Below, piece by piece: positions 11,448 to 63,800 of a DNA stretch of 64,000 nt (positions are counted from its first letter, which is position 1; the number at the start of each line of letters is the position of its first letter). Below the pieces are notes generated by a model, which saw only the letters and a list, made by a program, of their open reading frames with translations, was not told the DNA's origin and did no database searches. Origin of the DNA: Antedon mediterranea (taxonomy: Eukaryota; Echinodermata; Crinoidea; Comatulida; Antedonidae); contig NC_092673.1 of assembly GCF_964355755.1 (NCBI RefSeq), positions 17,549,001 through 17,613,000 on the forward strand. Reading direction: 5' to 3'. The position numbers and the translations under genes were made by a program.

Positions 11448-11454
11448 TACAGTA
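11448..11454. other. TACAGTA: 5-bp insertion relative to sister transposon copy
   Basis: This TTAA copy reads gaatgtACAGTatacg where the copy at 15,531-17,124 reads gaatgtatacg in the same orientation. The extra five bases turn a TA into TACAGTA, the form left by excision of a Sleeping Beauty-type Tc1 element. Confidence 0.8.
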
Positions 11455-11853
11455 TACGTTACGCTTCATTGATTATGAAGGCTTTTCCCTAAGTCAGTGC
11501 GAACATCGGCAAACGTAAACTGAATCTCCAAATGATTTGACACAATTTTGATGAATTTTCATAGAAAATTGACTTTATAAATGGGAAGACCGACTAAAAT
11601 TACATCAGATAAGTATAATTTTACAAAAGTAATTGATATGGTTAATGATAACGAGTCGTCGGAAGATTGACCATTTCACGAATTTCCTATTCTGTAACCA
11701 CAGTGTTATTTTGCCGTAGCTGCACTTGTAATCTGGCCTCATTTCACAGCCTTCGTTCTGCTTCACTGGGCGCTTATATAAATTGAAACTTTTACCGTTG
11801 AAGAGATAAACAAATATATTTTATATAATTTTAAACCTGGAACCCTCCTTTAA

Positions 11854-12447
11854 TGTTCATGCTCGACTCATTATTGAGGAGATCGGGCCTCCAGTCCTTG
11901 TAACCAAACATTTTTAAAAACCCATGAAAAAGATAAAAAAGAATTGACAAGCAGAGAGTCGACCCCTGCAACCCTGCCTCTAGGCCTATACCCTCATCAA
12001 TACACCACCGATCCATCCAGCTTGTTGATCGAATCAGGTTTTACTTTGTATAATATGAATAGAGAACAAATGTATTATATGTATTAGCATTTTAACCAAC
12101 CAATCAGAACTGAGTTGACCTTGTTTCTATACTGGTGTCACCACATAACAAACAGGCCTTCCTGGGGTTTCCCTGATCTCACAACATGCATTCAAACACA
12201 CCGTTGTGGTCTTTCATTTTCAGAAAACACAGTGTGGTGGTCTTTTGTTTTCATGATGCATCAAACAACTACAATGCACTGCAAGTTTGACGTGATGCGT
12301 AAAAAAACTTTTCTATTTAATTGTAACGGTAGTCGTGTCGAGGGCCAAGACAATAACGATGGCAAAAAATTATCAATGTACAAAATATAATATTTATTCA
12401 ATCAAAAGTAATATTATAAAACAATGTGAAAATGTAGTGATTCTGAC
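11854..12447. other. Unassigned spacer between two transposons
   Basis: I recognise no gene, RNA or repeat. Short frames here (minus 11,831-12,016; plus 12,115-12,390) have no recognisable domain. Confidence 0.5.
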
Positions 12448-12675
12448 TGATGTTATAGTCTCAAGAATCAATACCCAAACTAACTAACTTAACTACAAAA
12501 CATATATTTATATTAAGGGGACAAAAGTATGAGTAATTAAATGGTAACACATCCTGATTGACTTTCCTTGGAAGACCCTCCTCAGGAATGTAGTGTTCCA
12601 AGTTAAGTAGGCATCGGGGAGAGGAAGGGGTGAATAGCCTGTGTGACTAATAGGGTTTGGTCCCACCATGTTACA
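12448..12675 (-). repeat. 3' LTR of the Gmr1-like element
   Basis: On the plus strand it begins tgatgttatagtctcaagaa and ends ccaccatgttaca, giving TG...CA ends on either strand. It differs from the other LTR at about three positions by eye (gagtaa/gactaa, gtaacac/gtaccac, gaggaag/gagtaag), so the insertion is not ancient. Confidence 0.9.
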
Positions 12676-12685
12676 TTCCCCCGCT
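12676..12685 (-). promoter_or_regulatory. Polypurine tract next to 3' LTR
   Basis: Read on the minus strand, agcgggggaa directly precedes the 3' LTR start (tgtaacatgg). A purine run at this spot primes plus-strand DNA synthesis in LTR elements and supports the LTR boundary and the orientation. Confidence 0.7.
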
Positions 12686-13439
12686 CGTCAATTCGAAGCC
12701 ATGTCTTCGAAACCAACGAGTCACTGAGCCAAAAGTGTATTGACAAACAAACAAACAAACTTAACTACGAACATCTTAAATTTAAACAAAAAGAAAAAGT
12801 AATTAATGCAAATCGTCACAAATTAATAAATCGGCAAACGTGGCAAAATATACAAAATTAAAAGTAAAATTGTTCAAAGTTCCCAATTTAAAAGTCATAA
12901 TAATAATATAAAGTGTTCAGCTCAGCAATGCTCAGTTAAAAAAAGTCAGTTGGTCATAAATTCAGTATTAACTCCCGATGGATGCATCAATCAGCAGTCT
13001 ACCAGTCCGTTGCCAGGAAACAGTTTGTATTTTTGTAACAAAAAAAATCTGTAAACAACATAACTGCAGTTGACTGCTCATTATATCTTGAAGAAAATGT
13101 TTAAAAAATGTACATTTCTGGACTCAAGTTTATCATTAAAGTGAAACAGTTTATCAATAAGTAATTATCATGTAAGTGTTAAAAGTTTCTTGTGATCCAT
13201 TGTAAACTTCATTCAGGGAACATAGTTGTGAAAAGCTTCTTATATCTAGTGGGCAGGAGGGGAGAACCAATAAAACACAATTCAACATACACATCATCAT
13301 GAAAGTTGCAGTAAACTTAATACTACATTTAACTAAATCCAATTTGATAAGCAAATATTAGCGTATTATATTTAAGATTATACATTACAAACATGAAAGT
13401 GATTTTACAAAATTATTGAAAAAGGCACTCTTAACTACT
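12686..13439. other. Retroelement 3' internal remnant, non-coding
   Basis: This lies between the truncated reverse transcriptase and the 3' LTR. I see no conserved RT or RNase H motif. The frames at 12,643-12,861 and 13,154-13,354 show no recognisable protein. Confidence 0.5.
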
Positions 13440-13449
13440 GTACTGTACA

Positions 13450-14095
13450 TAAGATAAAATACGTAGTGATCCATCAGGTTTGGGGACAGAAGCAATGGAG
13501 GCAGACCATGGGATTGTCAATGGTTCAATAATACCATTATCATGCATGTGTTGTATTTGTAATTTGACTTGGTCTTCTAATGCATAAGGGATTCTATAGG
13601 CTTTTTGTCTTACTGGGGTATCTGTTGTTGTACAGTACGTACTTCATGTTTAACCATATCTGTTCTACCTGGGATATCTGTAAACATAAATCGTTTTGAG
13701 TCATGATTTGGTGAAGGTCGCCTTTCTGGGAAGGAGTAAAGGTAGCCCGGGATTTCAATATCTTTATAGGATTGGGCTTGGGAAGTGGCGGGGCCTGGTG
13801 GCTCGGGAGGGAACCAGTCGTCTGGATCTGGGTCACGTGCAGTGTACATACAATCATTGTTTCGTTTCTGTGGACGTTCGTTATATAACCGTAGTGAATT
13901 AATGTGGTATGTTTTGTGTTTGTTACCAACTAGTATTTCATAATTAACATCACTTAAAACTTTAGAGATAGGATAGGGACCTTGCCATTTAGATTTAACT
14001 TTCGATGTGTCATCTGGGAGGAGAATTAATACTTTCTGTCCAACCTTAAATTTTCGAGGCAATGTTTTCTTATTATAATAATGTTTCTGTTTCAC
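13450..14095 (-). pseudogene. pol fragment: integrase C-terminus followed by RT start
   Basis: The frame at 14,095-13,610 opens with a typical integrase tail: KQKHYYNKK, then KVGQKVLILLP, WQGPYPI, VNYEI and KTYHINSLRLY. It runs without a break into an RT leader (FTDIPGRTDMVKHEV). A frameshift at 13,631-13,637 follows, where TACAGTA on the plus strand adds five bases. In the shifted frame the first RT block continues (PWSASIASVPKPDGSLRI) and stops near 13,450. The catalytic aspartates are absent. Because integrase and RT leader share one frame, the order is native and not a rearrangement. Confidence 0.82.
13631..13637. other. TACAGTA causing frameshift in pol
   Basis: Seven bases TACAGTA (TACTGTA on the coding strand) sit exactly where the integrase-RT leader frame gives way to the RT frame. 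Taking out five bases joins the two frames. Confidence 0.8.
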
Positions 14096-14289
14096 TTGGG
14101 CTTGTTTAAGGTTGGTTCTAGCAATGTCATTTTTCTTGGGAAAGGTTTAAGTGGTAGGGCATCAGTGATTGGGAACGTTTTAACGTTAAGGGCCGGCAGC
14201 AGCTAAATTAATAGCCTCTTGTCTTTCTTGGTCACGGGCTTGTTTTCTGGTAATAGCTAATATAGAAGGGGCCATGTGACGTCGTTTGG

Positions 14290-14580
14290 GTTACCGGTCA
14301 TAACTTTGTTGCCAAGTAATAAGTCTTTAGGGGTGTCATTACACACGGCTGCCTTTAATTTTCCTTTATAAGCCTTACAATCAATATGTACGTGTACAAC
14401 TGGGAGGGTTATGCATTGACCAGTAAAGCCTTGTACGGTAACAGTTTCACTGGTATAATCCTTGTGTTTAACAAAAGTACTTTTTACAATGCTTTGGGAG
14501 CACCCAGTGTCTCTACGTATTTCGGCCTGTCTGTTGTTAATTGTACCAGACAGTAACCATGGGTTTGTCCCACAATTGTG
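14290..14580 (-). pseudogene. Retroviral-type aspartic protease relic
   Basis: Read on the minus strand, one frame gives AEIRRDTGCSQSIV, an Asp-Thr-Gly active-site triad in the DTGC form, and about 75 residues later DLLLGNKVM, the LLLG signature near the protease end. It follows the gag zinc knuckle after a short linker in another frame, so the gag-pol frame is broken or shifted here. It would have cut the gag-pol polyprotein. Confidence 0.75.
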
Positions 14581-14623
14581 TTCAATATACAGGCCTAGTA
14601 ATTGATCTTTTGCAGGGTTGTTG

Positions 14624-15216
14624 TTAAGGGGGCATTGTCAATGAAATGTGGCCTGGTTTATTACATTTGTAGCACATAATGTTTTGTGTAGTGTAGTGGT
14701 GATTGGTGTAGGTACCGCTAGGGGCTGAATAATTATCAAAAGGGATCGAGAGCAAGGGTTCTGGGGAATAACTCGATGTAGGTTGGGGAGGGCCTTGGGA
14801 TGCGGGACTGTAACTAGGAAACGGCGGAGCTATTGATGGAATGGTGGATATTCTCGGGGAAGGTCTGGTGTTGGGTTTAGAGATAGATTCCATCCAGGGT
14901 TTACCTTTAATTTCAATCAGGGTATCGGCAATTCGGGAAAATTCATGGGACGTTTTAGGCTCTCTTTCTTTGATTAGGGAAGCAAGTGGGAAGGGGAGTT
15001 TTTGGATCGCCTGATCTAAAAGAAAAAAGTCAAGAATTTCCTTGGGGTCTTGTAGGTTACCTTTTGCACTTCGGAGCCACCTCGTCATGTCTCGATCAAG
15101 TTTTCCAACCCACACTCTAGTGGACATTGAAAGGGGTTTTGGGGTTTGTCTAAATTGTTTCCGATATGTTTCAGCTGTGAGGTGGTACTTCAGGATAGCA
15201 TCTTTAAGGTCGTTGC
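14624..15216 (-). pseudogene. gag C-terminal part with CCHC zinc knuckle
   Basis: The frame starts inside gag (DLKDAILKYHLTAETYRKQF), continues through a SCAN-like helical segment (DRDMTRWL, LDQAIQKLPFPLASLI) and a Pro/Ser-rich linker, and ends with CYKCNKPGHISL, a zinc knuckle cut before its last cysteine. The upstream boundary at 15,216 is exactly the edge of the inserted TIR element. The N part of the same gag lies beyond it at 19,069. Confidence 0.82.
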
Positions 15217-15530
15217 AGACCTTGATTTATAAATATAAGAGGAGAGCTCCTAATGGCCTTGTTGAGGCCATTAGGAGAGCCATTATTTTGATTAAGTATC
15301 CGAGGCACAGGCCCACCATGGTTGGGCCTGTGGCGAGCCGAATTTTGATAAATGACACCTCTAGATGGCCGGAAATGGTACTCTCGCACGTAAAATTCAT
15401 CGTAGGTCAATGACCGTGTTCGTACGGCGATTGAAATACACGTTTATTTGGTTTTTACCCTTGGGGTAAAACCCATACGACGTTCGTACGAATAAACAAA
15501 GTACCGGTAAGCTGACACGAAACCAATTAA

Positions 15531-17124
15531 AGGGGGGTTCCGGGTTTAAAATGAATAGTAAAAAATGTAAAATATGTTTGTTTGTCTCTTGAACGGTAAA
15601 AGTTTCAATTTATATAAGCGCCCAGTGAAGCAGAACGAAGGCTGTGAAATGAAGCCAGATTACAAGTGCAGCTACGGCAAAATCACACTGTGGTTACAGA
15701 ATACGAAATTCGTGAAATGGTCAATCTTCCGACGACTCGTTATCAATAACCATATCAATTACTTTTGTAAAATTATACTTATCTGATGTAATTTTAGTCG
15801 GTCTTCCCATTTATAAAATCAATTTTCTATGAAAATCCATCAAAACAGTGAAAAATTAGATAAGTTTGCACTTTACGTTTGCCGATTTTCGCACTGACTT
15901 AGGGAAAGCCTTCAAAATCAATGAAGCGTAACGTATACATTCCTGCTGAGCAAGGAGAGCGAGACGACGATACAGTGCTCTCTCTGCCCATGCCTGGCAT
16001 CGTCACGTGATAAGCAGATACAGTATACAATACCAAACTGGTCGGGTCGAGTATACCCCGTCTATATCACAACATGAACGATGTACAGTATTTGATTGAA
16101 GGTCGACTCAACCTACCGGAATGGTATAGATAATATAGCTCGAATGAGAGAGTTGGAATATTTGTAAACATAAGTACAGTATTGCTAATTTTAACAAGTG
16201 TAGCCTATAGTAAAAGGCCTGGTAGTATCAATTCGCATAGGGTCTACTACACTGGCTAGCTCAATTTTTAACTGGGCCGGATCGGCTAGGCTAGGCTAGG
16301 TCTCCTTCCTACTACCGGTATACTTGCTTGATGCAGTATCCGATTTTTTGGAGAGTAAACTAGGCCTACTTATTAGACGATCGGGACACCATACGTGCGG
16401 ACGGCGATCGGACCTTGTTTTGCCTCAATATTTACAGCCGATTTTTGTAGAACGTTTTAGGTTTAGATTGTTTAGGAGTTTGGTTGATAGGATGGGTTTG
16501 GAATCCACTGAGTTTTGTTATTTATGGGCCAATCGTTTAGTAATAGGCTAGCTAGGCCCATGAATGATGGCCATCGTGGCATGGAATCCCTAGTCAGAAA
16601 TGGCTCTCACCCCGGCATGAATAAAATGATTTAGGCTAGGCCTAGCCTAGTACGTGAAGCCGATATACGATCTGTACTATTAATTCGAGGTATAAAAATA
16701 GTATAATTTATGACTCCGTAATCTGTACTAAATTTTGTATTTCATTAAATGTCAAATAAATATATGCTACTACTGTTATTATTACACTTTAGGCCTAGCT
16801 TAGCAAATCTACAAAAAATGTATTTCACAATGATCGGGTGGTCGTCGTTTGACAGAGGAGAGAGAACACAACGTACAAGCTTGACGTCGCGAGTTTGGAA
16901 TCCACTGATGACGTGATTTTGTGAATATCTCATGAATATTAATGAGCTTCCCTAAGCTGCTGAAAAACAGACTTTCCATGAATTTACCCTAAAATGTATA
17001 TGAAATTTAATTTTTTTAATTTCTCGTTAGTACTTTTTCATTCTGACATGTCTATATTGTTATAATATTTTTTATTTAATAAATAAACGATATTTAAAAG
17101 CAATTTTAAACCCAGAATCCCCCT
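15531..17124 (+). mobile_element. TTAA-type non-autonomous DNA transposon, copy 2
   Basis: A 1,594-bp element lies between TTAA at 15,527-15,530 and TTAA at 17,125-17,128. Its ends are aggggggttccgggttta and, inverted, agggggattctgggttta. It matches copy 1 (6,327-11,849) in reverse orientation over its length but lacks the three inserts, giving empty sites for all of them. Scattered frames such as 16,324-16,551 do not resemble a transposase. Confidence 0.88.
16175..16181. other. TACAGTA: 5-bp insertion relative to copy 1
   Basis: In the orientation of copy 1, this copy reads agcaaTACTGTActtatg while copy 1 (about 11,212) reads agcaatactatg. Removing five bases aligns the two, with one remaining single-base difference. 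Confidence 0.65.
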
Positions 17125-17354
17125 TTAAGATCAGAATTCTTAGGTCAAAAAGCGCCCTCTGTGCGTCGACCCATATCAATTGACATGGCGTGTTGACATA
17201 TTCAACTGGATATTGCATGTCGTTTTGTGCGCGAATCGTTCAATTATTATTTTTCAATCGACAACCAGACCTATATATTTATAATACATCGAATACAATT
17301 TATTTTTTAACTAAATAATGATCGAAAATCCTGCTAACGTATGTTGTTTGTTGA

Positions 17355-17645
17355 CCACGTGTATTTATCGTGCGAGCCGAACTATTGTTGTGGAAATTCC
17401 ATTTAATGTACACGCACTGTACCCCTCTTGTAAAAATCACCACGTGTATTTATCGTGCAAGCCAAACTATTGTTGTGGAAATTCCATTTATTGTACACGC
17501 ACTGTACCCCTCTTGTAAAAATCACCACGTGTATTTATCGTGGGAGCCGAACTATTGTTATAAAAATTCCATTTAATGTACACGCACTGTACCCCTCTTG
17601 TAAAAATCACCACGTGTATTAATCGTGCGAGCCGAACGGTTGTTG
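17355..17645. repeat. Tandem array, 85-bp unit, about 3.5 copies
   Basis: Units starting ccacgtgtatttatcgtg begin at 17,355, 17,440, 17,525 and 17,610. Each contains the E-box-like palindrome CACGTG. Confidence 0.92.
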
Positions 17646-18554
17646 TGGTGAAGTCACAGACACCAGGCTACCACAATACAGAACTCCCTGCCGTTACATG
17701 TACATTATAAGCCACCGATTCGCAAGTTCAGGTCACCGGAGAAAACCAACGAGTTGATTATTTACATATAATTTTACAAAACAATAGATATACATTCGCA
17801 TTAACGAAAAAGAACATTTTAAACAATAATTGCTAAACAATCAGAAAGCTTATTTGAGGTCGTGATTTGACATGACCCCGTTAACGCTTGATTAATTATA
17901 CCCCGAGGCAGTGTGTAATTGGAATGGGATTGTAATAACCAGTAAAGTTGGTGGATTTTTCGTCCAGATGGTTTTCTAAATTTTTATAGCCAGAGGCGTA
18001 AGTTAATTGCCACACGCGACCTCACAGTTGGAAGTACACGGTAGTTTCAGCCCCGTCCGAACGGGCCCATTGTTCTCTGAACGTAGTCTACGATGTATTG
18101 TTATGATAATTATCTACGCGTCGATCGTAGGGTGGTTAGTAAACACCATTGTCATTGCCTTTAGAAGCATGGACAATGCAAACAAACAATGTATTGTTTG
18201 CTAATTAAAATCATATCTAAAGATAGTAGACGTCAATTTTTGTAGCCACCCTAGCTAGGCCTACGCATCGGTTATCCTAATTTGGACGGAAATCCGCCGA
18301 CGAGACGACATCGGGTCCGTGGACCTCAGCTCACGCAGAGAGAGTCGAGGCTATCTAGTCTAGTTTCGGCGGCCTACACTATAAATTATTTAATCCTACC
18401 TTGGGTTAGCGAATTATAAAAAGAACGACACCTAGCCTAGGCTAGGACACCAACAAAATATATGCAAAATAAATATATATTCCATATTATTATTAATTAC
18501 TATAAGATTTAACATAAAGGCTTAAGCCTTTTAAAATGATTACGACCAGAATTT

Positions 18555-21270: not shown

Positions 21271-21274
21271 CTTT

Positions 21275-28110: not shown

Positions 28111-28114
28111 CAAC

Positions 28115-46700: not shown

Positions 46701-49700
46701 TCTCCTTTCTTTATTTGAATGAATATTCTTAAAAACGGATTTACCATTTTATGGGCCCTCAACAAGACAAAACAACAAACAACAACAAAGAATTATAAAA
46801 ATTAAAATAAAGATATGAACAAGATGATAATGACAAAGAAGTTTGTGTTAATAAGAATGATATTACTCTAACATAATAATTAGTATCATATTTTAACACA
46901 AAGAATATAATGCTGATTATTAAGATAAACATAAAGTGTGTAGTTTTGTTGTACTGTAGTTGAATTTCTAAAGCTGATTATAGATATAGAAAGTTATTAT
47001 AATGTTTCACAAATCTTTCTGAAAACAATGATTTCAACAATAAATATAGCATAGCATAGTTAAATGTAGACAGTGAACAATTTTATTCCCTGGTGGTAGT
47101 GTTTTCTCTGCTTTGGCCCTCCTCAGCACTCCACATTTTGCTGAAACAAATAAAAATTGAAATTTACATCATTGTGTGAACAGGTGCCATGTTAAAATAT
47201 ATTAAATATAAATTAGACAAATTTCATATATATCTTGTTTTTAAAATAGACTTATATATATATTATATAAAAATCATAGATAAAATCTCATTGATTAGAT
47301 GATAAGTGAGAGTACCAATGCCTATTATTGTAGATAAAGGTTATATATAATAATATGATACCATGATGATGATCAAGATATGATAATGACACTCGGGCTA
47401 TGTTCAGACATAGCCTCACCAGCCTTTGTAACCTACACCAGTATAAAAATAGATAAATTATTATTATATGGTAGCATTATGAACATTAACAATTTTTGCC
47501 AAGTTGTGTCTTTTAATATTTCTTTTTATGAAAAATATGTGTAAAAGATTTTGTATGTTACATTTTTTAGATTTACCAAGTCTTGTTAGTAAACAGTTTG
47601 AGAAACTAATGGTTGAAGAACAGAAAACAAAGCTTAAACCAGTGATTGGTGAGTTTAAGAATCGTATAAGGAGTTGTATGGTTCAATGTAACATATTGTG
47701 ATTAAAATGGTATTTCAGTAGTGGACTTGTAGTAAGAATTTCATTCATTTATTTTATCATATATTATATAATATACAAATTCTTATAATTGCGTGCAACT
47801 TCAATAGCTTAAATTGTCCTTGGCTGTACTGCTATGATTATAAGTTTCTCACTCATGGTTCAAAATTTGGCACAAAACATTTTCAATGAGTTGAAAGATT
47901 AAGAGAATAATTTAATTGGTCAGATGTTTTGTCTTATTCTGACGTAATTGCACTGTATACTCAGTTCAATGAGAACACTTTGCGAACAAATTTAAAAGTA
48001 TTTGACAGATTGGACTCAAACCCATGACCTCCAGATTACTAGCATTGCGTATATACCTCCAGACCACCGAGCTCAGTAGTATAGAGAGGTTTGAGTCCCA
48101 TCCACACACTCATTATAGTGTAAATATCTTTTTAAATGGTTACATATTATTTTAGTTACTGTTCATGTATTTATTACAACAGATGGCATGGTAATGATAC
48201 CACAACCAAAGTTGGCTGCAATAATATTAAAAACAGGAAAAACTATTTTTGTTATAAAATTAAATAGAACTAACACTGTGCAATTCAAGTTGAAATAAAT
48301 GAATTGAGGAAAATAGACAATCTTACATTGCTGTATATAAATTGTTCTGCTAGTTAACTTAATGACATGTTCAAATATAAGCTGTATTACTGTATCTACT
48401 ACTGTACTGTTAATATAATCTTGACAATAAAGATGATTTGGTACTATTTTTGTTAAGGAGTTATACTCTAAAGAGAGCTAACATTGTAACTTTGTCATGG
48501 AAGAAAGTATAATTGTATTATGAAGGAGATTGCAACAATTACTATATAAACACAATTCAAATAATATTTCATTCTGCAGATCAAATGGAGTTAATTGTGG
48601 ACTCTACAGGTGGAACTCTTCACCTTAAGGATGAAGACATCAAGTTGGAGATACAACCTGGAGCAATTGAAGAAGGAAAAACAGTTAAAATATCACTAGA
48701 AAATATTTTGGAGGAAACAGACATGCCTGTATTTCATCCACTTGAATCAATAATATCACCTATTGTTAAATGTGGACCAGAAGGCACCATCTTCCACAAG
48801 CCCTGTTTACTGTCATTTCCACACAATGCTGTAAATGAAGAGTTTTGGGAATTCACTTTACTTTTTCAAAAATGCTCTCAAGATAAATGGAAAAAACTGA
48901 CAGAAAGTAATGAAAAGGACATCAATTTTACATTAAAGAATGGTCGATGTTTTATAAATTTAATTCACTTCAGTGGTTTTGCATTTATGGGTCGAATAAG
49001 AAACGTTTTTCATGCTAAGAAAAGTATAAAATTTGGAGTCTTTGGAAAGATGATTGTAAATGAATATCAGCTTCGAGTAAAATTTTGGATGCCGGAAAAA
49101 CAGCAGGTCATTTTAAATTTGTTTAAATATTCATATTCTTTATTTCAAATCGTACTTACAGTGAAACACTGAATTACTGTAATTTTTACAATGTTAAAAC
49201 ATTTTAAAACTATTAAATTAAATTTTAATAGTAAGTAACACCATATAAAACTAAACTACTGTACACATAAATAACAGAAAAAAAATAAAGTTGCTGTGAT
49301 TTTCAGCTTCCTAAAAAAATTCAGTTGCACTAAACAACACAAAAGAAATTTAATGGAAAATCAGCCTACAATTTGTCTGAAATTGATGGCGAATTAAATA
49401 CAGTAATTGTATAAAATCTTCAATACTTCAAAGAACTGCAGTTTTACCACACTGCCGTCATTCTAAAAGCTGTATTTAGATTATTATTATTTAACTTTAT
49501 TTATACTATATGTATAAATTTTATTGATTGGACTAATCATTATAAATACACTTAAAAAATGTAAACAACATTTTTAAACTTGAAGCAGATCACAAGTGCT
49601 TGAATTCAGAGCGGAATAGAAGATTCAGAGACATATGTACTGTACTCATAAAACAGCCTATAGTTGATCAAAAATGTTCAGTTTAAAAAAATCTTGTCTG

Positions 49701-52700
49701 AATTTTAGGAGGTTGATAAAGAACAAGCATACCAGGGAGAGAAACTTTTAGAAGGAGGTACAGTACGGTCTTTGTATAAAGACTTGGAAATAAGTGTTGA
49801 AATACCAAATCAAGAATGGAGAATAGTGGATAAAAGAAAAAAAGTAAGAATATTTATTTTGTTTTTCTTTGTAATAATTAATAATTGAAAATTCTATCTA
49901 TCTATACAAAATTTAATATCATCACAATGATTCCAATTAAACAGGATATTGAAAAAATCTCTAAACCCCACCTTAACATTTCTGAAATAAATAAAAAACT
50001 TGAAGTGAGTAAAAAACAATAAGAATTTGTTGATTATTGGTACTGTACTACCAATGGTCTGAAAAAACCCATTAAACTAGGCCTACTAGACTCAAGCCTC
50101 ATTTTTTGTTTATTACTCGATAGTTTTACTTGTAAATGTTTGAATTCAATTCAATTAAATTCATTTATTTTCCAGAAAGACATAAAAAACATATATTTAT
50201 TTGTAAACACTTTTATTTTCATTTATCCGACTCATCGTCAGGGCTTAATGTATATATATTACTGTATTTTCAATTGGATTTAATTGATTATGAAATTAAA
50301 ATATAAGATTTTTAAATAAATTGGTTTTCTTGTTTGATTTTCCTGAACTAGGGTAGGCTCCATCCTACTGGAAGATAACTGGTTCCCAAAAGATAGAGTT
50401 TTGTCATTTTGCGTGTGAATTAATGATTAGCTTACTTCTAACTATAGGCCTATGTCTGAATCGATTAATACTTTGCTCGGAGCGCTTATGTCAACTGAGT
50501 TGAGTTTGAGCCCAGGTTTTTGAGAATTACGGCCCACCACTGTTGAAATGAAATTTCTTTGATTTGAAGATAACCTGGTTTGATATTGACCTTAATCTAA
50601 TGACCTTACAGTATTTGAGTATTAAAAATCTGACTACAGTGCCCATCTACAAATTCAAAATCAGTAAAAACTAACTACTGTACTTTTTAAAATTTATCAC
50701 CATACTTTCTTTTTAGATTATTCCTGCTGAATACCTATCGTTCGAAATATCATATGAGAAATTTTTTTTAAAAAGAAAGAATTCATCCACAAATCTTCTA
50801 AAGGCAAAGTTATTGCTTTCACAAGATTCAAATTTTATTCCCGAAGTGGAAGTGGTTTGTAAGTACAATTTAAGTAGCAAAAATCTACATATAAAACACA
50901 TTATAATTTATAAAGTACATTGTTCTTTTTGAAAACTATTGAATCTGTGATCTTGGACATGTATCCTAATTAAACCACAAATCATATTTTTTTTCCAGGT
51001 GATATTGGAACATTGGTTTCAAGCCAAAGTATGTATTTTCAGTAGTAACTGTTTATATTATATATTTCCTTCATGAAAAACTAATAATTCGTCCATCCAA
51101 AATAGAGCAACTTTTGTTTTAGTTAAATTTTTAGTAACATAAAAAGAGATTGTTTGCATGAGGTACAGTATATTTTTTTGTTTTTAGTCAGAATTCAAAT
51201 TAACATGCTACATTCTTCACATGCAAAAATAATGTTGTTATAACCACTTGAATGTATTGTTTGTTACAGGTAATGTTGTACCATCAAGATCAAATTCAGG
51301 TATAATTATTATATTTTTATGTTCCAATTTTTTTTTTGTACAATGATGGTGACAGTGAATGGATTAACATCAATAATCTAAATCAACAGTATTAATTATA
51401 AAAGAAAGTGTGTATTAGTCATAACAGGGACCAGTAAGTAAGTATATCAAAATAAAGAAATTTAAGTAAACCATTCAAAATCATTGTAATTAATTATGGG
51501 TAAAAAGACATTTATTAACACACAAGAAGAATAGGCCTACTTCTTCATATAATTCAAAGAAACCTAATAGAATTATCAACTGTTTCATTCCAACTTTTCA
51601 AAATAAATCATTTTAATACAGTTTTTTTTATATGAGTGTGCAAATGTAATTGTTTATTTTTTAATGAAAATTGGTAATTTAGTGAATAACTAGAGGGTAC
51701 TCCGAGAGTACAAACCTCCGCCTACTGTAAAATTCCCCTACATAAAATTTTCCCGGAAAATATATATAGTTCTAAGTGTAAATAGGCTAACTGCACACTA
51801 CAAAGTTGTGGATGAGAGTTTGGTGTAATGGTTATGTATCCAGCCTCTCACAGTTGAGATCGCTGGTTCAAGTCCCACTGAAGTTATTTTTTTTTAATTA
51901 TTATTTTTTTATTTCTTTTTTTGTTTTGTTTTTTGTGGACCTTAATGATCTTTGACCCTGACCCTTCAAAATTTAACCACAATTATATGATGAGTCATTG
52001 ATCATTGTGGCTAAGTTTGGTGAGATTTGGATAAAAACTGTGGTCTCTAGGCAGTAAAATAGTTTTTTGTTAGTTGTGACCTTGAACTATGACCTTTTCC
52101 CCTCAAATTCAAACTCGTCCGAGCTTTTGAGGAATAGATCATTGTAGCCAAATTTGGTGAGATTCGGATAAAAACTGTGGCCTCCAGGCTGTTCACAGAC
52201 ACACACACACACAAACACACAGGGGTGAAAACCTCCATGGCGGAGGTAATAAAATAGTATTACTCAAAAGATAATGCTACTTAAATCTATTATAAGCAAA
52301 TTTAAAAGGTTTAGCTCTTTAATAATTAAAACAAAATTGCACACATGAATGCATTTCAACTTGTAAAGATTTGTTTTTACAATCTATATATAAATTATGG
52401 TTAATTCTGACATAGTTGAGGACAATGGAAAAACTTCGGTATAAATCTAGAGAACCATTCGGGTACAACCAGTGGAGGGTGCGCGAGCGAACCCTCTAGT
52501 AGTGATAATTGTAATTGTAATAAAGAGGACTACTTTTTTCTTTTTGCAGTCACTGTAAATCCATGGCAAGTAAGGTTCAACAAGTTGAAACATGATCTTA
52601 GTCTAGTCTATGTTGGTGATAAATTTCTCTTACTGAGATGCTGTCTCTTTGACCACATAGATCTACATCACCTTACTGATCCAGGTAGCATCGCACATTA

Positions 52701-53221: not shown

Positions 53222-54306
53222 AATGAAGAAAGTAATTTACCATTACCATGTAAACCATTGCCATGTGAGACAATCTAGCAACTACCATTGCCGTGTGAAA
53301 AAATCAAGCACGTACCATTGCCATGTGAGACAATCTAGCAACTACCATTACTGTGTGAAAAAATCAAGCAAGTACCATTGCCATGTGAGACAATCTAGCA
53401 ACTACCAGTACTGTGTGAGAAAATCAAGCAAGTACCATTGCCATGTGAGACAATCTAGCAACTACCATTATCATGTGAGAAAATCAAGCAAGTACCATTG
53501 CCATGTGAGACAATCTAGCAACTACCATTATCATGTGAGAAAATCAAGCAAGTACCATTGCCATGTGAGACAATCTAGCAACTACCATTATCGTGTGAAA
53601 AAATCAAGCAAATACCATTGCCATGCGAGACAATCTAGCAACTACCATTACTGTGTGAAAAAATCAAGCAAGTACCATTGCCATGTGAGACAATCTAGCA
53701 ACTACCATTATCATGTGAGAAAATCAAGCAAGTACCATTGCCATGTGAGACAATCTAGCAACTACCATTATCGTGTGAGAAAATCAAGCAAGTACCATTG
53801 CCATGTGAGACAATCTAGCAACTACCATTACCGTGTGAAAAAATTAAGCAAGTACGGTACCATTGCCATGTGAGACAATCTAGCAACTACCATTATCGTG
53901 TGAAAAAATCAAGCAAATACCATTGCCATGCGAGACAATCTAGCAACTACCAGTACTGTGTGAGAAAATTAAGCAAATACCATTGCCATGTGAGACAATC
54001 TAGCAACTACCATTACTGTGTGAGAAAATTAAGCAAGTACCATTGCCATGTGAGACAATCTAGCAACTACCAGTACTGTGTGAGAAAATTAAGCAAGTAC
54101 CATTGCCATGTGAGACAATCTAGCAACTACCAGTACTGTGTGAGAAAATCAAGCAAGTACCATTGCCATGTGAGACAATCTAGCAACTACCATTATCGTG
54201 TGAGAAAATCAAGCAAGTACCATTGCCATGTGAGACAATCTAGCAACTACCAGTACTGTGTGAGGCAATCTAGCAACTACCATTATCATGTGAGGAAATC
54301 TACCTA
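53222..54306. repeat. Tandem array, 60-bp unit, about 18 copies, just after the host gene stop
   Basis: The unit is caagtaccattgccatgtga + gacaatctagcaactaccat + ta.cgtgtgaaaaaatcaag, itself built of related ~30-bp halves. One unit carries a 5-bp insertion (gtACGGTacc at 53,853-53,859). The plus frame that continues from the host gene's stop is open to 53,873, where this insertion shifts it; the alternative frame then runs to 54,307. A translated unit would be a His/Tyr/Ser/Lys-rich 20-mer. It is probably a 3'UTR or intronic minisatellite. Confidence 0.95.
53853..53859. other. TACGGTA: 5-bp insertion within the 60-bp array
   Basis: All other units read agcaagtaccattg; this one reads agcaagTACGGTAccattg. 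The form differs by one base from the TACAGTA found elsewhere and could be a mutated footprint. Confidence 0.6.
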
Positions 54307-55530: not shown

Positions 55531-55537
55531 TACTGTA
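55531..55537. other. TACTGTA: 5-bp insertion in one array unit
   Basis: This unit reads gtaaTACTGTAccac; sister units read gtaataccac. Confidence 0.85.
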
Positions 55538-55815: not shown

Positions 55816-55822
55816 TACAGTA
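55816..55822. other. TACAGTA: 5-bp insertion in one array unit
   Basis: This unit reads gtatgTACAGTAttg; sister units read gtatgtattg. Confidence 0.85.
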
Positions 55823-56959: not shown

Positions 56960-58420
56960 CTATAAGCCCCTCTTGATAATTACATCAACTCTTGAATATG
57001 GCGCAAATTTAAGAGGGTGGTTGGACCATGCCCGTTCAAGACCGGACTTAAATTGATTGGTTGATCTTGAAGCTACTACATCCTCCGATAACGAATTCCA
57101 TAATATAATAGCTTTTCGACCAAATGAGTCCCTCATCCAATTTGTGCGTGAGAACTTAAATTTTAATTTAAAAGAATGACCACGTGTTCTAACATCTTCA
57201 TCACGCTCAAAAAAAGAATCAGCAGAAATACTATCCACTCCATGTAAAATTTTAAAAATCTGTATCAAATGAGCTCTTTGCCTTCTGTATGCGAGAGTAG
57301 GTAGGTTGAGAATTTTCAGCCTTTCTGAATAAGGTAAATGACGAATGGAAAAAATAAGCTTGGTGGCGCGTTCTTGGACTTTTTCCAATAGGTCTTCCTC
57401 CTTACAATGTAGCGAGTTAAAAACAACGTTGCAGTATTCCAAGGTCGGACGAATAATAGCTTTATATAAACGAAGAAACCCATCCATATTTAAAAACTTG
57501 AAAGCTCGATATACCATGCCCAACTTCCGATTTGCTCTCATTGCTACATCTGCCACATGTACATTAAAAACAAGTTTAGAGTCAATAGTAACACCGAGGT
57601 CTTTTTCATGATCAACTTCATTCAATAAGAAACCACGCATGGCATACAGATGTTTGTTGTTTTTCTTCCCAAAGTGCATTACTTTGCACTTACCCTCGTT
57701 AAAAGGTAATTGCCATTTGTCAGACCAGTCACATGCTTTCTCTAAATCTTCTTGTAGAACTTGAGCATCATTCACAGTGTTAACTACTCTATACAATTTA
57801 GTATCATCTGCAAACATGCGTACAGAGGAAGAAATAACAGAAGGTAAATCATTTATAAACATACAGTAATGAAAAGAACAGGTCCAACGACGCTTCCTTG
57901 CGGGATACCACTACGAACATCAGCCCAATCTGAAACACATCCATTGACACTAACCCGTTGTTGTCTATCGTTAAGAAATTCTTGAAACCAGTTTAGAAGT
58001 TTACCTCTAATACCCAATGCACTCATTTTCAGAAGGAGTCTATGATGAGGCACACTATCGAAAGCCTTCTTGTAGTCAAGGTAGATACAATCAAAACAAT
58101 CCTGATTATCAAAATAAGAAAACCAGTTTTCAAGAACATCAAGTAATTGTAAAGCACAGGAACGACCTTGCCGGAAACCAAATTGCTCATAACAAATAAG
58201 TGAGTGATGTTCAAGAAAGTCCAATAATTCCTTCCTGATAATTCTCTCCATAATTTTACCAACTACCGAAGTTAAACTCACAGGTCTATAGTTGCTTGGG
58301 TCAGACTTCACTCCTTTTTTAAAAATCGGTACCACTGTAGCCCGTTTCCAACTATTAGGGACGGCTCCTTCTAGAAACAATTTCGTAAAAATAATATGGA
58401 GGGGGTAGCAAATGATATCC
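56960..58420 (-). pseudogene. LINE ORF2 C part: reverse transcriptase in two frames
   Basis: RT blocks in order: GAVPNSWKRATVVPIFKKG, SNYRPVSLTSVVGKIMERII, QFGFRQGRSCALQLLDVLEN, YLDYKKAFDSVPHHRLLLK, SGIPQGSVVGPVLF, then after a frameshift at 57,862-57,868 INDLPSV, MFADDTKLY (the catalytic ADD) and KCKVMHFGKK. The C-terminal region typical of CR1 follows (LYKAIIRPTLEYCNVVFNS, YRRQRAHLIQIFKIL, FGRKAIILWNSL). All catalytic residues are present; only the two 5-base insertions break the frame in this part. Confidence 0.87.
57862..57868. other. TACAGTA frameshift in LINE RT
   Basis: On the coding strand TACTGTA lies between the GPVLF and INDLP blocks. Removing five bases joins the frames with the spacing expected for this RT block. 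Confidence 0.88.
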
Positions 58421-58422
58421 TT

Positions 58423-58429
58423 TACTGTA
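58423..58429. other. TACTGTA frameshift at the start of LINE RT
   Basis: On the coding strand gaacTACAGTAaag makes the stop TAA. Removing five bases restores the frame from HPRILVEL into the next RT segment. Confidence 0.88.
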
Positions 58430-59780
58430 GTTCGACTAAGATGCGTGGGTGAATACCATCAGGTCCAGCTGTTTTAGTAATATTCAACGTTGATAAAATA
58501 TTTAAGATTTCGTCACAAGGAAAGTCAACTTGAGATAAAAAATCCTCTGAAGTGTCATCAATAGCCGGTACATTCGAAAAATTTTCATCGACAAATACAC
58601 TACTAAAAAACGTGTTTAGCAACTCAGCCTTGTCCTTGTCATCAGACACATGCCTTCCATTACTATCAGTTAAGTTGGGTATACCAGACTTTATATTGAT
58701 CTGAGAACTGAGATACCTCCAAAAAGACTTTTCATTAGATTTGATCTCAATTGCTATTTTATTTTCGAAGTCAGATTTACTACATCGAATCAGATCTACT
58801 GTTTGATTTCTTACTTGGACAAACTTCGACCATTTTGCTGACACACATACTTTTTGTTTTCTCTTGGCCTTTACATACTGTTTCCAACATTTATTCTTTT
58901 TGGCAATCTGCTTTTCAATTTTTTTGTTCATCCAAAGAGGTTTTCTTCCGTGGCAAACCTTCCTCATCGGGATACACTCATCAATATTCTTCGCAAGAAT
59001 ATGCTCGAATTCGTCCCACGATTGAATACCTGATTTGTCATTGAAAACCACATCCCAATCTACCAAACCAATTTTCTCGCGCAGCAAATCATAGTTACCA
59101 TGCCTGTAACTTCGAATATTTGGTTCAATTCTGTCATCTCTTACAAGATCCAATGAAAATTGTAACATCATATGGTCGCTTTTACCCAGTAGTGGAGACT
59201 GCATAATGCCATTTATAGTATTCTCTTTGTCTGTAAAAACCAGATCCAAAACATTGGGTGTTTCGCCTTCTCTGTATCTAGTAGGTTCCATAACGTGTTG
59301 AATTAAAAATAGATCGTTGATGGTGTCAAAGAAACTTCTGCTGGAATCTCCATCTTCCGAAGACACACAATTTAATTCCCAGTTAATACTTTTATAGTTA
59401 AAATCGCCGACAACGATTAAATCAGAAAAAGATGATTTATATACTTCACGGAACAATGAGTTCAGCTTGATATTATTATCCATACTACAAGTCGGGCTAC
59501 GGTAAACACAACCTAATAAAAGATCCGTTTTTACTTCTTTTACTCTAACCCAAACTGACTCTACAAACTTATTCTTCTTAAAGAAAATTTGAGAAACTGA
59601 AATTCCATTTCTGACATAAATTAAAACACCACGACCAGAAGTAAAATCCTCATTCGAAAAAAATGCTTGGTAACCTTGGACACGAAATTCATTTATCAGT
59701 GGCGGGTACAAACAATGCAAAGTAACTCTGACTTCTTATTTAGAAAACCATCACAATTTGAGTACCAAAAGTTAAATTTC
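58424..59780 (-). pseudogene. LINE ORF2 N part: APE-type endonuclease, damaged
   Basis: The N-terminal block NFWYSNCDGFLNKKSELL is readable at about 59,773-59,720 but runs into a stop at about 59,697. In a second frame the domain resumes at YPPLINEFRVQGYQAFFSNE. Compared with CR1 endonucleases, the segment with the catalytic glutamate (TE.. block) is missing, a deletion of perhaps 20-30 codons. Later blocks are intact: SGRGVLIYVRNGIS, GCVYRSPTCSMDNN, VVGDFNYKSINWELN and LLGKSDHMMLQFSL (the SDH catalytic histidine). The frame continues through the linker to GPDGIHPRILVEL at the start of RT, and stops at 58,422 by a frameshift. Confidence 0.82.
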
Positions 59781-59834
59781 TGATTGGAAAACGTACTTTC
59801 TTTTAAATTAGAGAACTTTCTGTTTTTATTTTCT

Positions 59835-60689
59835 TTATTGGGAACGAAAAAGCTTCACAATCTTCCCACTTCGGATAACTATGTCTTTCTCACCTGCATC
59901 TAATCGCGTTTTTAATTCACCTTTTAACTTAGTGAATGCTTCTCTTTCTTTCATGGTTCTATCATTACTAACAGCAAAACCCTTTTGAATTGCTAGAGAA
60001 AAAACTTGACGTTTAATAGACTCCTTTCTGAAAACTAATTTCAAAGGCCTCTTAATATCCTTCTCAGCTTTTCCAACACGATAGATAACTTTCATTTCGG
60101 CGTCGATATCAACTGAACCGTTACAAAAAGAACGGATAACAGATAAGTCATGTTGTTTGCGGATTATGGGATCACTACTTGTATTTTCCTCAATATTATA
60201 TAACATTAGGTTACACCTTCTTCTTTCCTTCTCAGCTTCATCTTCAAATCTCTCATTTATTGCTGTTAACAAATCAATCTTATCAGTTGAATCCTTAGCC
60301 TTGAGATCAGCAATATCACTTGAATTTCGTGTGATAGTTTCATCTATACGTTTTATGTCTTTGAGAATATTTTCTTGTGTTTTACCGATCGTCGACAACG
60401 CTTTCAAAAAACCACAAGCAGACTTATTACAGGTACGACAATACCAATGAAGGCCCTGTTCACCAGATGAAATAACATCAAATAAAGACTTTCCTACGTC
60501 TTGACATGAACAATGAAAACAAAACCCACACATGCCACACGTTACTGATTGATTGTCAACAGCTTTACTACAACTACCACATAGGCCTAGATGAGGAATC
60601 GAATCATCCCCCGCTGGGGTTAACGCCGACCTAAGCTTACGAGCTGTCTTAGGCCTACCACCACCTCCAATATAGCCTCCACTAGCCAT
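59835..60689 (-). CDS. LINE ORF1 protein with PHD-type zinc finger
   Basis: An intact 284-residue frame. A basic N-terminus is followed by a Cys/His-rich finger at about residues 36-90 (LCGSCSKAVDNQSVTCGMCG, FHCSC, WYCRTC). Next come a coiled coil at about 105-155 (ILKDIKRIDETITRNSSDIA, RFEDEAEKERRR) and an RRM-like/C-terminal domain (CNLMLYNIEEN, KVIYRVGKA, RPLKLVFR). In CR1 and L2-like LINEs this protein binds the element RNA and trimerises through the coiled coil. The ATG is the first in frame, and ORF2 begins shortly downstream. Confidence 0.85.
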   Translation of the reverse strand: MASGGYIGGGGRPKTARKLRSALTPAGDDSIPHLGLCGSCSKAVDNQSVTCGMCGFCFHCSCQDVGKSLFDVISSGEQGLHWYCRTCNKSACGFLKALSTIGKTQENILKDIKRIDETITRNSSDIADLKAKDSTDKIDLLTAINERFEDEAEKERRRCNLMLYNIEENTSSDPIIRKQHDLSVIRSFCNGSVDIDAEMKVIYRVGKAEKDIKRPLKLVFRKESIKRQVFSLAIQKGFAVSNDRTMKEREAFTKLKGELKTRLDAGEKDIVIRSGKIVKLFRSQ

Positions 60690-60987
60690 CCTTAAAAATC
60701 ACAACAATCCTTGAACAAAAAGGCTTGTTTTCTATGAATCCGTCAAGCAATAATACTAAAGAGCAAATAGCGTTATGTTTTTTAAATACTTGCGATCGAA
60801 AAGTGTAAAAATTATGATAGTAAAAAGATCTCCAGACTACGAAATCACAAACACGACCAACCACCGCTAGTGCGCCCTCTAATCGCTAATCGTAACTTTA
60901 TTAAAATAACGATACTGGAATATTTACAAACATTAATAATACAAGCAATCATTGGGATTTGTTTATTTTAATTTTATATTACATAAA

Positions 60988-61042
60988 GCATAGAGATATT
61001 ATAGTGAACTATATATAATAGTTCACTATAATATCTCTATGC
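60988..61042. repeat. Perfect 23-bp stem hairpin
   Basis: gcatagagatattatagtga (plus act) is followed by a 9-base AT loop and the exact inverse. The flanking acataaa and gcataaag strings extend the symmetry weakly. Confidence 0.85.
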
Positions 61043-62080
61043 ATAAAGTGATAAAGCTGTGAGTTTTTCTTGTCAGAGAATAATAGAGATTCTCTGCTAT
61101 TCTGTATACATTTGTACATTACAGTGATAAAATATTACATAAAATGTGAATAAAGATGATTTATTTTTGTATATAGAAAATTGTAACAAAAAATAATTTA
61201 TATTTTGATTCATTGTATCAGTCATTGTGTTTTGTGTGTATAGCAATATAAAGGATTATTTGTGTGTTACATTGTCTGCTACATTGATTTGTAACTAAAA
61301 TACAGTCAACTCTCAAACCCTAAACATTCATGAAAACTCCTGACAAGACCATTTTAAAGACCAGAATTCCTTTCTTGCTTTTATAAAATATTTTTAAAAA
61401 ATCATACTTTTTAGCTTGGATGAAGTGTGTCTTGCTTCATTAAGGAGCATTGGCTCTATACTTTAATTAATATAATAGGTGTTACGTTACCAGTTTTGTC
61501 TACAATAAACATTTCTTGGTTTTCTTATTTTGCAATTATACATTTTCAGCCTTAAAATTGCTTTTTTTTCTACCCATAATACAAATATAAAACAAATCAA
61601 TGCAAAATTTTGAGTAATAAGACTATAAAAAATAGAGAGGTAAAATACGCTGGAACTGGAATCTTACTGGAGGCTTACTTGTCTTGTAATCAAATTAATT
61701 TGTGTTATGTATATTGGAAAACCAAACAGGACAAGATAGACGCACAAAATCAAATGTAAAATTGGAAATTACTCTTTATAAAAGAAAGATTATATTGGAA
61801 GAGGTGATGTATTATATTATGATTGATATTTGATAAGAAATGTAGGCCTACTACAATTTATAGCAATATAATATTTGTATCCATTTTACCATGGAGAAAT
61901 AATCTTATTAACCCGGAGTTTCCCCTTGATTACTGTAGGGTTTTTTTATGCGACTGTGGCCAATGTTCTCCGATTTTGACATGGACCTATTCTAATTTAT
62001 AGGTCCTGGTCCATGATTTTAGGATTTTAGAGATAAACATTGATTGCGCCCTCAATAAAGTATAATTTCAAAAAACATAA
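61043..62080. other. Spacer, nothing recognised
   Basis: AT-rich. The string tacagtcaactctcaaaccc at 61,300 resembles a pogo/Tc1-type end, but no inverted partner was found. Confidence 0.4.
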
Positions 62081-62097
62081 CACACCAACATCGAGGA

Positions 62098-62225
62098 GTG
62101 TTGACAAAGTGCGAGGCAGCGAGGCAAGCGAGGCATGCCAAATATTTGTGCGAGGCATCATTTTATCATTTCCAAAAGTGCGAGGCATATAGTTTACAAT
62201 TTCAAAAAGGTGCGAGGCATATCTT
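62098..62225. repeat. Short irregular repeats of gtgcgaggca
   Basis: Four copies of gtgcgaggca with irregular spacing (about 62,108, 62,149, 62,188, 62,210), plus the related gcgaggcaagcgaggcat. Confidence 0.75.
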
Positions 62226-63230
62226 AACGTGCTATTATGCTATATTATAGGCCTAATAATCAATCGATACAAGCGTATCTAAATAGATTCGTGTATACAC
62301 TCATCATGTTGTTTATTTTTATGTAACGATTGTTTTTTTATTCAAGTCATATCGTGTCAAATTTTACTTTTACAAAAGTGCCCAAACTACGGTTCAAAAA
62401 TCTGAACGACAGTCTTCAACTTTCGATAAACAATAATTGTTATAGCGACACACTCAGCAAATGACTGCAATGTTTGTTGGCATTTCGAGCGTGTTCACTC
62501 ACATGTCTTTCGAACATAGCAGAGTGAAAGTAATATTTTGTCACACCCCTGCGCCTAGATCCGGTAGACCCGAGAGATGGAAAATCCCTCTTTACTATTT
62601 AGCAGGTAGCGGAATGATTCAGCCCTCAGCTCAGAGGATTGTGGTGCATTCCCCTCCTATAGCACGTGGTTTCAGCAGCAACGCACAGACTTCTCTCTGA
62701 GCGGCGTGCCAAAGACATTTTTGACATTCCATTCTCTAAGAACAACACGTGTACCTCTCTCGCAAATAAGGTGAACAGCGATTGCGAGGACAAGTTCAAT
62801 AACTGGCGGTGAATAAAAGGTAACTGATATGCCGATCCAATAACATGCCGCAAAGAAAAAAATTGCGACAGAATTCTGGAGCGCGTGTGAAAAAAGACTT
62901 ACGTCCGACAATTGTAATACTAGGCCTAAAATTAAACTTTAGCTAATATGCTTAGCCCCAACCTAGATAAAGGCCTATGTAGAAAATAGTTTAATCAATT
63001 TTGATAAAATAATAATTGGTGTAATATTTAATAATGATACACTATTCCTGTTTTAGTAAGCTAGGTATATTACGAACGATTTTTATTTATTTATACGATT
63101 TTACGTTAGGATACGTCTATAGGAGGCCTCCTGCACCTGTTTTTGTGAAACGATCCAATGAGCTATGCTCGACGCGATTATGAGATCATGTTTTCGAATA
63201 TGAGCACTGTTTCTATAATTTGACAGTAGG
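62226..63230. other. Spacer, nothing recognised
   Basis: Frames at 62,461-62,700 (plus) and 62,626-62,911 (minus) overlap on opposite strands and match no family I know. Confidence 0.45.
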
Positions 63231-63234
63231 ATTC

Positions 63235-63800
63235 TATATATAAATTTACGTAAGGGCAAAATTCGGTAAATCTCGGTTTATTTCTAGAATTTCTACTCGA
63301 TGGTATATAAAGTTGGTTCATACTTTCGGTACTGATTTTAACCATCTGATGTAACCCTGTTTACTAATTAAATTGAGTTAGGTAATTAGTTATTGACGAT
63401 TAAAACGAATTTAGGTTCAACGATTTGCCCCAAATAGGGGTGTTTTCCGATCGTGGTATACACTGTCTAATGGATGTCCATCTTGAAAAAAACCCGCCAC
63501 AAAAATACGAGGAGGCTTCGCATTTTCCTATCTCCTCCTACGATAATTGTTTTTAATAGCTGAAAACTGGTTGAACAGCTAGAGTACAGCATCATAATGT
63601 TGAAGACAGGCCAATTTTCTTAAAAAAATACTATTTTGATAGATTTAATATACGATTATACAAATGTATTGATTTGCGATGAATGGAACATTCCAATCTC
63701 TGTTTCACAAGTGTCTATTCCCTCAGGCGTCGTAAAGGCAAGTACAGTACTGTATACTCGAAATTCGATCCATTTTTGTTTTCAATCTGTGCTGCAGAGG
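63235..63800. repeat. Dispersed repeat, copy 2 (~570 bp)
   Basis: It matches 46,015-46,600 in the same orientation with scattered substitutions. At 63,743-63,754 it has TACAGTACTGTA where copy 1 has tacagtcata, so this copy again carries an additional five bases. Confidence 0.85.

What the first reader, a model, noticed from the sequence alone, without database searches (positions are those of the whole stretch)
11448..63754. Window-wide five-base TACAGTA/TACTGTA insertions that look like Tc1 (Sleeping Beauty-type) excision footprints
Seen directly: five extra bases turning TA into TACAGTA or TACTGTA at 57,862 and 58,423 (both break the CR1 ORF2), 13,631 (breaks LTR-element pol), 11,448 and 16,175 (one TTAA-transposon copy versus the other), 55,531 and 55,816 (single units of one array) and 63,748 (versus the 46-kb repeat copy). 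53,853 has a one-base variant, TACGGTA. Removing five bases restores frame or homology each time. Known: Sleeping Beauty-like Tc1 elements leave TA-CAG-TA or TA-CTG-TA on excision. Inference: a Tc1 family, probably non-autonomous, has hopped in and out repeatedly and is a main source of frameshifts here. By eye the heptamer occurs about 50 times outside the 101-bp array, against roughly 15 expected from base composition.
Basis: partly seen in the sequence, partly recalled or inferred. Interest (0 to 1): 0.92.

Follow-up and report, generated by a model that had tools for sequence, protein, structure and literature searches.

The report
Jumping-gene exit scars in feather star
The DNA of this feather star is peppered with five-letter scars of the kind left when cut-and-paste jumping genes leave a site, and young jumping genes with the expected ends are found elsewhere in the same genome.

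Summary
Supported. The window is Antedon mediterranea, C4:17549001-17613000. TACAGTA/TACTGTA: 73 in the window; 49 outside the main arrays, against 8.8 in shuffles (maximum 20 of 200). Genome-wide: 314,048 against 118,829 for the reversed word. In a 200-kb sample it leads the 32 TANNNTA word pairs. Of nine named sites seven are borne out: five-base TA insertions at 11448, 16175, 53853, 55531, 55816 and frame switches at 57862, 58423. 63748 is not clean; 13631 was not tested.

A candidate parent exists: TA-flanked elements ending CAGTACTGACTACA, 23 exact inverted end pairs. One 5.5-kb copy has an unbroken 340-residue Tc1-type transposase. Two 1.6-1.8-kb copies read whole show none and differ by 2.2% outside gaps. 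Inferred, not shown: that this family made the scars, and that three-base overhangs, as in Sleeping Beauty, explain CAG/CTG; no site was seen both occupied and vacated. A second word set, TAGGCCTA/TAGGCTA, is also strongly over-represented; its origin is open.

The parts
11448..11454 (+).
   Evidence: 5 of 22 copies carry it, 1 diverged, 16 lack it
16175..16181 (+). TACAGTA, 5-bp insertion in the second copy of the same element
   Evidence: clean against L053 and L057
11306..11312 (+). TACTGTA shared by both window copies (the other at 16084) and by most aligned genome copies: an older scar or original sequence
13631..13637 (+). TACAGTA in an LTR element's pol region; frame effect not tested
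   Evidence: ORF 13610-14146(-) with an Integrase_p58_C match just under its cut-off
53853..53859 (+). TACGGTA, 5-bp insertion in one unit of a 60-bp array; perhaps the scar of a CCG-ended family
   Evidence: CCG-ended inverted repeats L009:2821-3541, L009:6689-7466, L008:20-958
55531..55537 (+). TACTGTA, 5-bp insertion in one unit of the 98-bp array
55816..55822 (+). TACAGTA, 5-bp insertion in another unit of the same array
57862..57868 (+). TACAGTA at a frame break inside the CR1-like reverse transcriptase
   Evidence: relatives P0034, P0060, P0064, P0069 end at 57868-57871 and restart in another frame at 57868; P0048 and P0066 restart there too but also run on in the old frame; P0031, P0041, P0044, P0074, P0079 end at 57865-57868 without a listed restart
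58423..58429 (+). TACTGTA at a frame break inside CR1-like ORF2
   Evidence: Antedon mediterranea protein P0006, 99.3% identical over 289 residues, switches frame at 58425
63743..63754 (+). TACAGTACTGTA, two overlapping words; differs from the 46-kb copy by 4 bp plus substitutions
2173..4768 (+). 101-bp tandem array; 21 units carry TACAGTA as array sequence, left out of the counts
48388..51729 (+). densest stretch: 13 of the 49 non-array words, around a ZU5-domain (UNC5-like) exon
   Evidence: ZU5 match, Antedon homologues

Best explanation
Most of the excess TACAGTA/TACTGTA words are excision footprints of Tc1-type transposons that insert at TA and end in 5'-CAG. Shown here: five-base insertions at TA between repeat copies; a strong genome-wide excess of this word pair; a Tc1-type family in the same genome with TA outside and CAGTACTGACTACA ends, one autonomous-looking copy and young copies without recognisable transposase. 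Inferred: the transposase cuts three bases inside the element on the 5' strand; the CAG 3' overhangs of the two flanks meet with one central A:A mismatch (recalled for Sleeping Beauty); end joining and repair leave TACAGTA or TACTGTA. The family found is a plausible main source, but a second Tc1 family with a CAG end (L039/L040) could share in it.
For: Excess: 49 against 8.8 in shuffles; 314,048 against 118,829 for the reversed word; 166 against 36-45 in 185 kb unmasked. For comparison, a passage of PMC4378557 gives over 300,000 such sites in the mouse genome, which is several times larger (recalled). TACATGTA, the two-base product of Tc1/Tc3 (recalled), shows no excess: 2 against 1.9. Empty-site comparisons: with a private TACAGTA in L060. 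CR1 frame breaks; P0006, on another contig, is 99% identical without that break, so the event looks young. Flanks of 162 sampled words show no shared sequence beyond a G+C preference at +-1. Parent: DDE_3 in 8 places, a lower bound; L037 element of 5.5 kb with matching ends; L029 transposase of 340 residues, DDE_3 at 5.7e-23, relatives named Tcb2 transposase at 48-49%; 61 exact ends, 46 of them in 23 inverted pairs; L061 and L062 differ at 34 of 1551 aligned bases. Known behaviour: Sleeping Beauty footprint TAC(A/T)GTA (PMC3432063, passages); CAG footprint, TA duplication, 3' overhangs repaired by end joining (PMC8151067, passages).
Against: No complete element of this family was seen in the window or in L001-L028 (the pair scans reached 3.5 and 4.5 kb only), just one 104-bp end remnant (L016). 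Words outnumber recognisable ends some 230 to 1 (195,219 excess words, 847 excess ends at up to 2 mismatches). Other five-base TA insertions occur (TAAGATA, TACTATA, TATTATA, TAAAATA), so part of the class may have another cause. Copies of one repeat share words, so words are not events. The PF01498 search found nothing, but its controls found nothing either. Window flanks are asymmetric (A at -3 in 30 of 49, G at -1 in 21 of 49), which the model does not predict; the sample shows little of it. CAG words also cluster mildly (10 neighbours within 100 bp against 4.5).
Confidence: 0.85

Rival explanations
1. The words are mostly decayed ends of elements whose inverted repeats begin CAGTA, not scars of excision.
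For: The family found here begins CAGTAC, so each insertion shows TACAGTAC at both ends; some Tigger-like MITEs of Rhodnius begin TACAGTA (PMC4678618, passage); one such end remnant lies in L016.
Against: Flanks of 162 sampled words show no shared sequence (three 12-base flanks recur three times each, as copies of repeats do); 1183 ends at up to 2 mismatches of this family against 314,048 words; pairwise comparisons show five added bases, not a truncated element.
Confidence: 0.05
2. Ordinary short duplications or polymerase slippage in AT-rich sequence make five-base TA-flanked insertions.
For: Other TA-NNN-TA five-base events occur; AGTACAGTAC contexts can be read as a tandem duplication of AGTAC (contexts).
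Against: The clean events at 11448, 55531, 55816 and L060 are not tandem copies of their flanks (by eye); slippage does not favour one G+C-containing word 4-5-fold over its composition.
Confidence: 0.07
3. The scars come mainly from another CAG-ended TA family (the second Tc1 family, or a pogo/Tigger-type family), not from the CAGTACTGACTACA family.
For: L039/L040 carry Tc1-type transposase sequence and share an end TA|CAGTACCGGACAG; their second end was not recognised. A pogo search (PF03184) was asked but not answered, so such families are untested.
Against: The CAGTACTGACTACA family shows recent spread: 23 exact end pairs, two copies 2.2% apart outside gaps.
Confidence: 0.35

Closest known systems
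Sleeping Beauty (salmonid Tc1-type transposon) excision footprint
   Same: TA target, CAG ends, TACAGTA/TACTGTA product (PMC3432063, PMC8151067: passages); transposase also 340 residues
   Different: Natural, accumulated scars in an echinoderm, not an engineered system; ends differ after CAGT; transposase about 28% identical to the recalled Sleeping Beauty sequence; cutting stagger not measured
Tc1-like transposases named Tcb2 in cnidarians
   Same: 48-49% identical along the whole length (P0090, P0114, 120 of 1945 hits listed)
   Different: Their ends and footprints were not examined here
C. elegans Tc1/Tc3
   Same: CAGT ends, TA duplication (recalled)
   Different: Two-base stagger giving TACATGTA (recalled); that word is not in excess in the window
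Zebrafish ZB and pogo-type Passer
   Same: Tc1/mariner-group elements with 0-3 and 0-4 bp footprints (PMC7913693, PMC9976928: passages)
   Different: Different transposase families; their footprint sequences were not read

Membership tests
Tc1 family (Tc1/mariner superfamily) | Transposase with DDE_3 catalytic domain and paired-like HTH | tested here: met
   L029 ORF: DDE_3 5.7e-23 and PAX 23.5 bits over their cut-offs; HTH_32, HTH_Tnp_Tc3_2 and HTH_SB matched below theirs
Tc1 family (Tc1/mariner superfamily) | DD34E spacing | tested here: met
   Hand count on the sequence: 34 residues between the second D (DNDPKHT) and E (PIEN); no formal alignment
Tc1 family (Tc1/mariner superfamily) | TA target-site duplication | tested here: met
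   TA outside both ends of L037 and of 10 of 10 fetched copies with unrelated further flanks; the pattern used to choose the 10 contained the TA, so that count is by construction. Independent: BLAST identity of L037 and L038 stops at the TA
Tc1 family (Tc1/mariner superfamily) | Terminal inverted repeats beginning CAGT | tested here: met
   CAGTACTGACTACA at both ends of L037 (21 of 24 bases); 23 exact inverted pairs
Sleeping Beauty-type excision | TACAGTA/TACTGTA at a TA that is plain in relatives | tested here: met
   Five-base insertions
Sleeping Beauty-type excision | Three-base staggered cut | not testable with these tools
   Inferred from the word; TACATGTA not in excess
Sleeping Beauty-type excision | Same locus seen occupied and vacated | not tested
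   Needs reads or assemblies of other individuals
Sleeping Beauty-type excision | Long IR/DR ends of about 230 bp | tested here: inconclusive
   About 28-31 bp of matching inverted ends by BLAST in L061, L062, L037; internal direct repeats not looked for

The most novel reading that the evidence does not exclude
The commonest odd words of this genome are footprint signatures of several TA-inserting families, each fixed by its first three bases and by how its overhangs pair: CAG ends give TACAGTA/TACTGTA; GGC ends would give TAGGCTA/TAGCCTA when the overhangs pair in register (central G:G mismatch) and the palindrome TAGGCCTA when they pair shifted by one base; CCG ends give TACCGTA/TACGGTA. 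The genome would then be a readable record of lifetime transposition by families whose living copies are few. For: excess of all three sets, GGC- and CCG-ended inverted repeats beside TA, indels TAGGCTA and TAGGCCTATA between repeat copies. Against: strong clustering of the GGC words (9 neighbours within 8 bp against 0.7 expected), and the one 6-base TAGGCCTA event (L001) lies beside an existing TAGGCCTA and can be read as a tandem duplication.
Probability: 0.25. Interest if true: 0.75.

Novelty: new member of a known kind. Interest (0 to 1): 0.58.

Why it matters
Footprints are known from transposon tools and single loci. Here they would make one heptamer the most over-represented TANNNTA word of a genome sample and break reading frames in a young repeat copy. 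Because scars stay when the element leaves, they may record past transposition where copy number cannot, and each repeat family supplies its own empty-site control. In the listings of my paper searches (20 of 182, 12 of 12, 15 of 20, 12 of 849, 12 of 45 and 10 of 56 papers shown) no title announces a natural genome-wide layer of Tc1 footprints; I read passages of only a few, and one listed paper (PMC1925063, title and abstract start) treats excisions of a Stowaway element in grasses.

Tried and rejected
Chance: rejected by shuffles and by the genome count. Two-base Tc1/Tc3 footprint: TACATGTA not in excess in the window. Full fill-in product TACAGCTGTA: none in the window. Element ends instead of scars: in the window the best TA|CAG end pair (19 of 24) lies inside the 6384-7292 palindrome and the only TA|CAGT pair reaches 15 of 24; in L001-L028 the three TA|CAG pairs reach 17 of 24 and look AT-rich or chance. 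A flank rule A-N-G before TACAGTA looked strong in the window and faded in the genome sample. Window tblastn for a Sleeping Beauty-like transposase: nothing convincing, best E 0.23. PF01498 genome search: no hit, control also silent. Paper search for TAGGCCTA: the listed papers looked unrelated. A genome search with a CR1 piece, to count copies with and without the two breaks, was asked eight times and not answered; likewise a genome count of TAGGCCTA, PF03184 and the Sleeping Beauty protein.
Full report
What the window is. A ZU5-domain exon at 48513-49172 is 82% identical over 77% of its length to an Antedon mediterranea protein, and contig C4, in which the window lies (C4:17549001-17613000), has the length reported for the contig of those proteins (36,192,472). 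The genome held has 354,431,138 bases in 18 contigs.

The observation. TACAGTA/TACTGTA occurs 73 times. With 13 tandem-array stretches masked, 49 remain in 51,284 bases; 200 dinucleotide-preserving shuffles gave a mean of 8.8 and a maximum of 20. Genome-wide there are 314,048 against 118,829 of the reversed word. In twenty 10-kb stretches at round coordinates on contigs C1-C10 (185,492 bases after masking) it is first of 32 TANNNTA word pairs: 166 against 36-45 expected. In the window it is second, after TAGCCTA/TAGGCTA.

The five-base insertions. Between the two long copies TA becomes TACAGTA at 11448. A genome search scored 40 of 359 candidate copies; I fetched 20 of the 40 and aligned them with the two window copies. 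At 11448, 5 of 22 carry the word, 1 has a diverged form, 16 lack it. At the 16175 site 13 carry it, 1 has a variant, 6 lack it, 2 cannot be compared. L060 alone has a further TACAGTA. In the 98-bp array single units carry it at 55531 and 55816. In repeat pairs of the 288 kb then held, 21 five-base indels were found, 8 with TA on both sides, 4 of them CAG/CTG; further cases are in L016 and L022. Against: the same kinds of comparison show TAAGATA, TAAAATA, TACTATA and TATTATA insertions, and 63748 is not clean against its copy.

CR1. Antedon protein P0006 matches 59291-58425 at 99.3% identity and continues from 58425 in another frame, where TACTGTA lies. Around 57862-57868, P0034, P0060, P0064 and P0069 end and restart in another frame; P0048 and P0066 restart there but also run on in the old frame; five others end there without a listed restart. 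Both breaks are thus at the word. P0006 comes from a contig of another length than C4, so a near-identical relative without the first break exists and that event looks recent.

Scars, not ends. In the genome sample the flanks of 162 words show no shared sequence beyond a G+C preference next to the word. No convincing element with paired TA|CAG ends was found in the window (pairs up to 3.5 kb) or in L001-L028 (up to 4.5 kb).

The parent. DDE_3 transposases are found in 8 places, a lower bound. One, in L037, lies in a 5.5-kb element bounded by TA and by inverted ends CAGTACTGACTACA. Its reading frame of 340 residues is unbroken and matches DDE_3 at 5.7e-23, PAX over its cut-off, and the Tc3 and Sleeping Beauty HTH models below theirs. 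Proteins named Tcb2 transposase in two cnidarians are 48-49% identical. The DD34E spacing is my hand count. The end motif with its TA occurs 61 times exactly, 46 of these as 23 inverted pairs: 22 spaced 1.57-2.65 kb and one 5.5 kb; with up to two mismatches 1183 times against 336 for the reversed pattern. I fetched ten of the 22 shorter pairs, two whole and eight by their ends. TA on both sides holds in 10 of 10, by construction of the pattern; the next 43 bases agree between the eight copies read by their ends, end by end, and the flanks outside the TA differ. Independently, identity between L037 and L038 stops at the TA. The two whole copies (1591 and 1771 bp) gave no match to either transposase query and differ at 34 of 1551 aligned bases, with ten gaps of 3-91 bases besides. 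They share about 150 bp of one end with L037 at 87-88% and about 290 bp of the other at 76%. A second Tc1-type family (L039/L040) shares an end TA|CAGTACCGGACAG; its other end was not recognised.

Mechanism. Sleeping Beauty leaves TAC(A/T)GTA (PMC3432063, passages); Tc1/mariner elements cut the non-transferred strand inside the element, leaving 3' overhangs joined by end joining, and the CAG footprint comes from the element's ends (PMC8151067, passages). The A:A mismatch account of CAG and CTG is recalled. The same chemistry predicts the words here. The absence of a TACATGTA excess in the window speaks against a two-base cut. What is not shown is a vacated site whose occupied form is also seen.

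Scale. The excess over the reversed word is about 195,000 words, against about 850 excess ends at up to two mismatches. Words are inherited by copies of repeats and lie also in arrays, so this is not a count of events. A cut-and-paste element with bounded copy number can still leave many scars over time; this is an argument, not a measurement.

A second set. The palindrome TAGGCCTA has 34 non-array sites in the window against 0.4, and 74 in the sample (148 counted on both strands against 2.6-4.0). TAGGCTA/TAGCCTA: 35 against 4.3 in the window, 54 against 15-17 in the sample. They cluster with one another. They could be scars of GGC-ended TA elements; GGC-ended inverted repeats beside TA exist in L022, but this is unproven.

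Noticed in passing
window-wide, e.g. 5255, 6036, 6083, 10049, 30065, 60582; genome sample L009-L028: Palindrome TAGGCCTA and TAGGCTA/TAGCCTA are strongly over-represented, often chained; possible scars of GGC-ended TA elements or another mechanism.
   Followed up: partly
L009-L028: TGACGTCA (a CRE-like palindrome, name recalled) is about 19-fold over-represented in the genome sample, 37 sites against about 2, with skewed flanks, so perhaps carried by a repeat family.
   Followed up: no
L009:2821-3541, L009:6689-7466, L008:20-958: Inverted-repeat elements of 0.7-0.9 kb beside TA whose ends begin CCGTA; they may explain the excess of TACCGTA/TACGGTA (36 against 15.5) and perhaps 53853.
   Followed up: partly
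G000 contigs: Exact end pairs of the CAGTACTGACTACA family are unevenly spread: 9 of 23 on C4 and 5 of 23 on C5, none on C3, C9 or C10; local hopping or a special chromosome are possible causes.
   Followed up: no
window 48388-51729: 13 of 49 non-array words fall in about 3.3 kb around the UNC5-like exon, perhaps an insertion preference for open chromatin.
   Followed up: no
L064, L068: Two element copies sit at a TA that is itself part of a TACAGTA or TAGGCCTA word.
   Followed up: no
window 6384-7292: A 0.9-kb imperfect palindrome (72% identity), perhaps a fold-back element.
   Followed up: no
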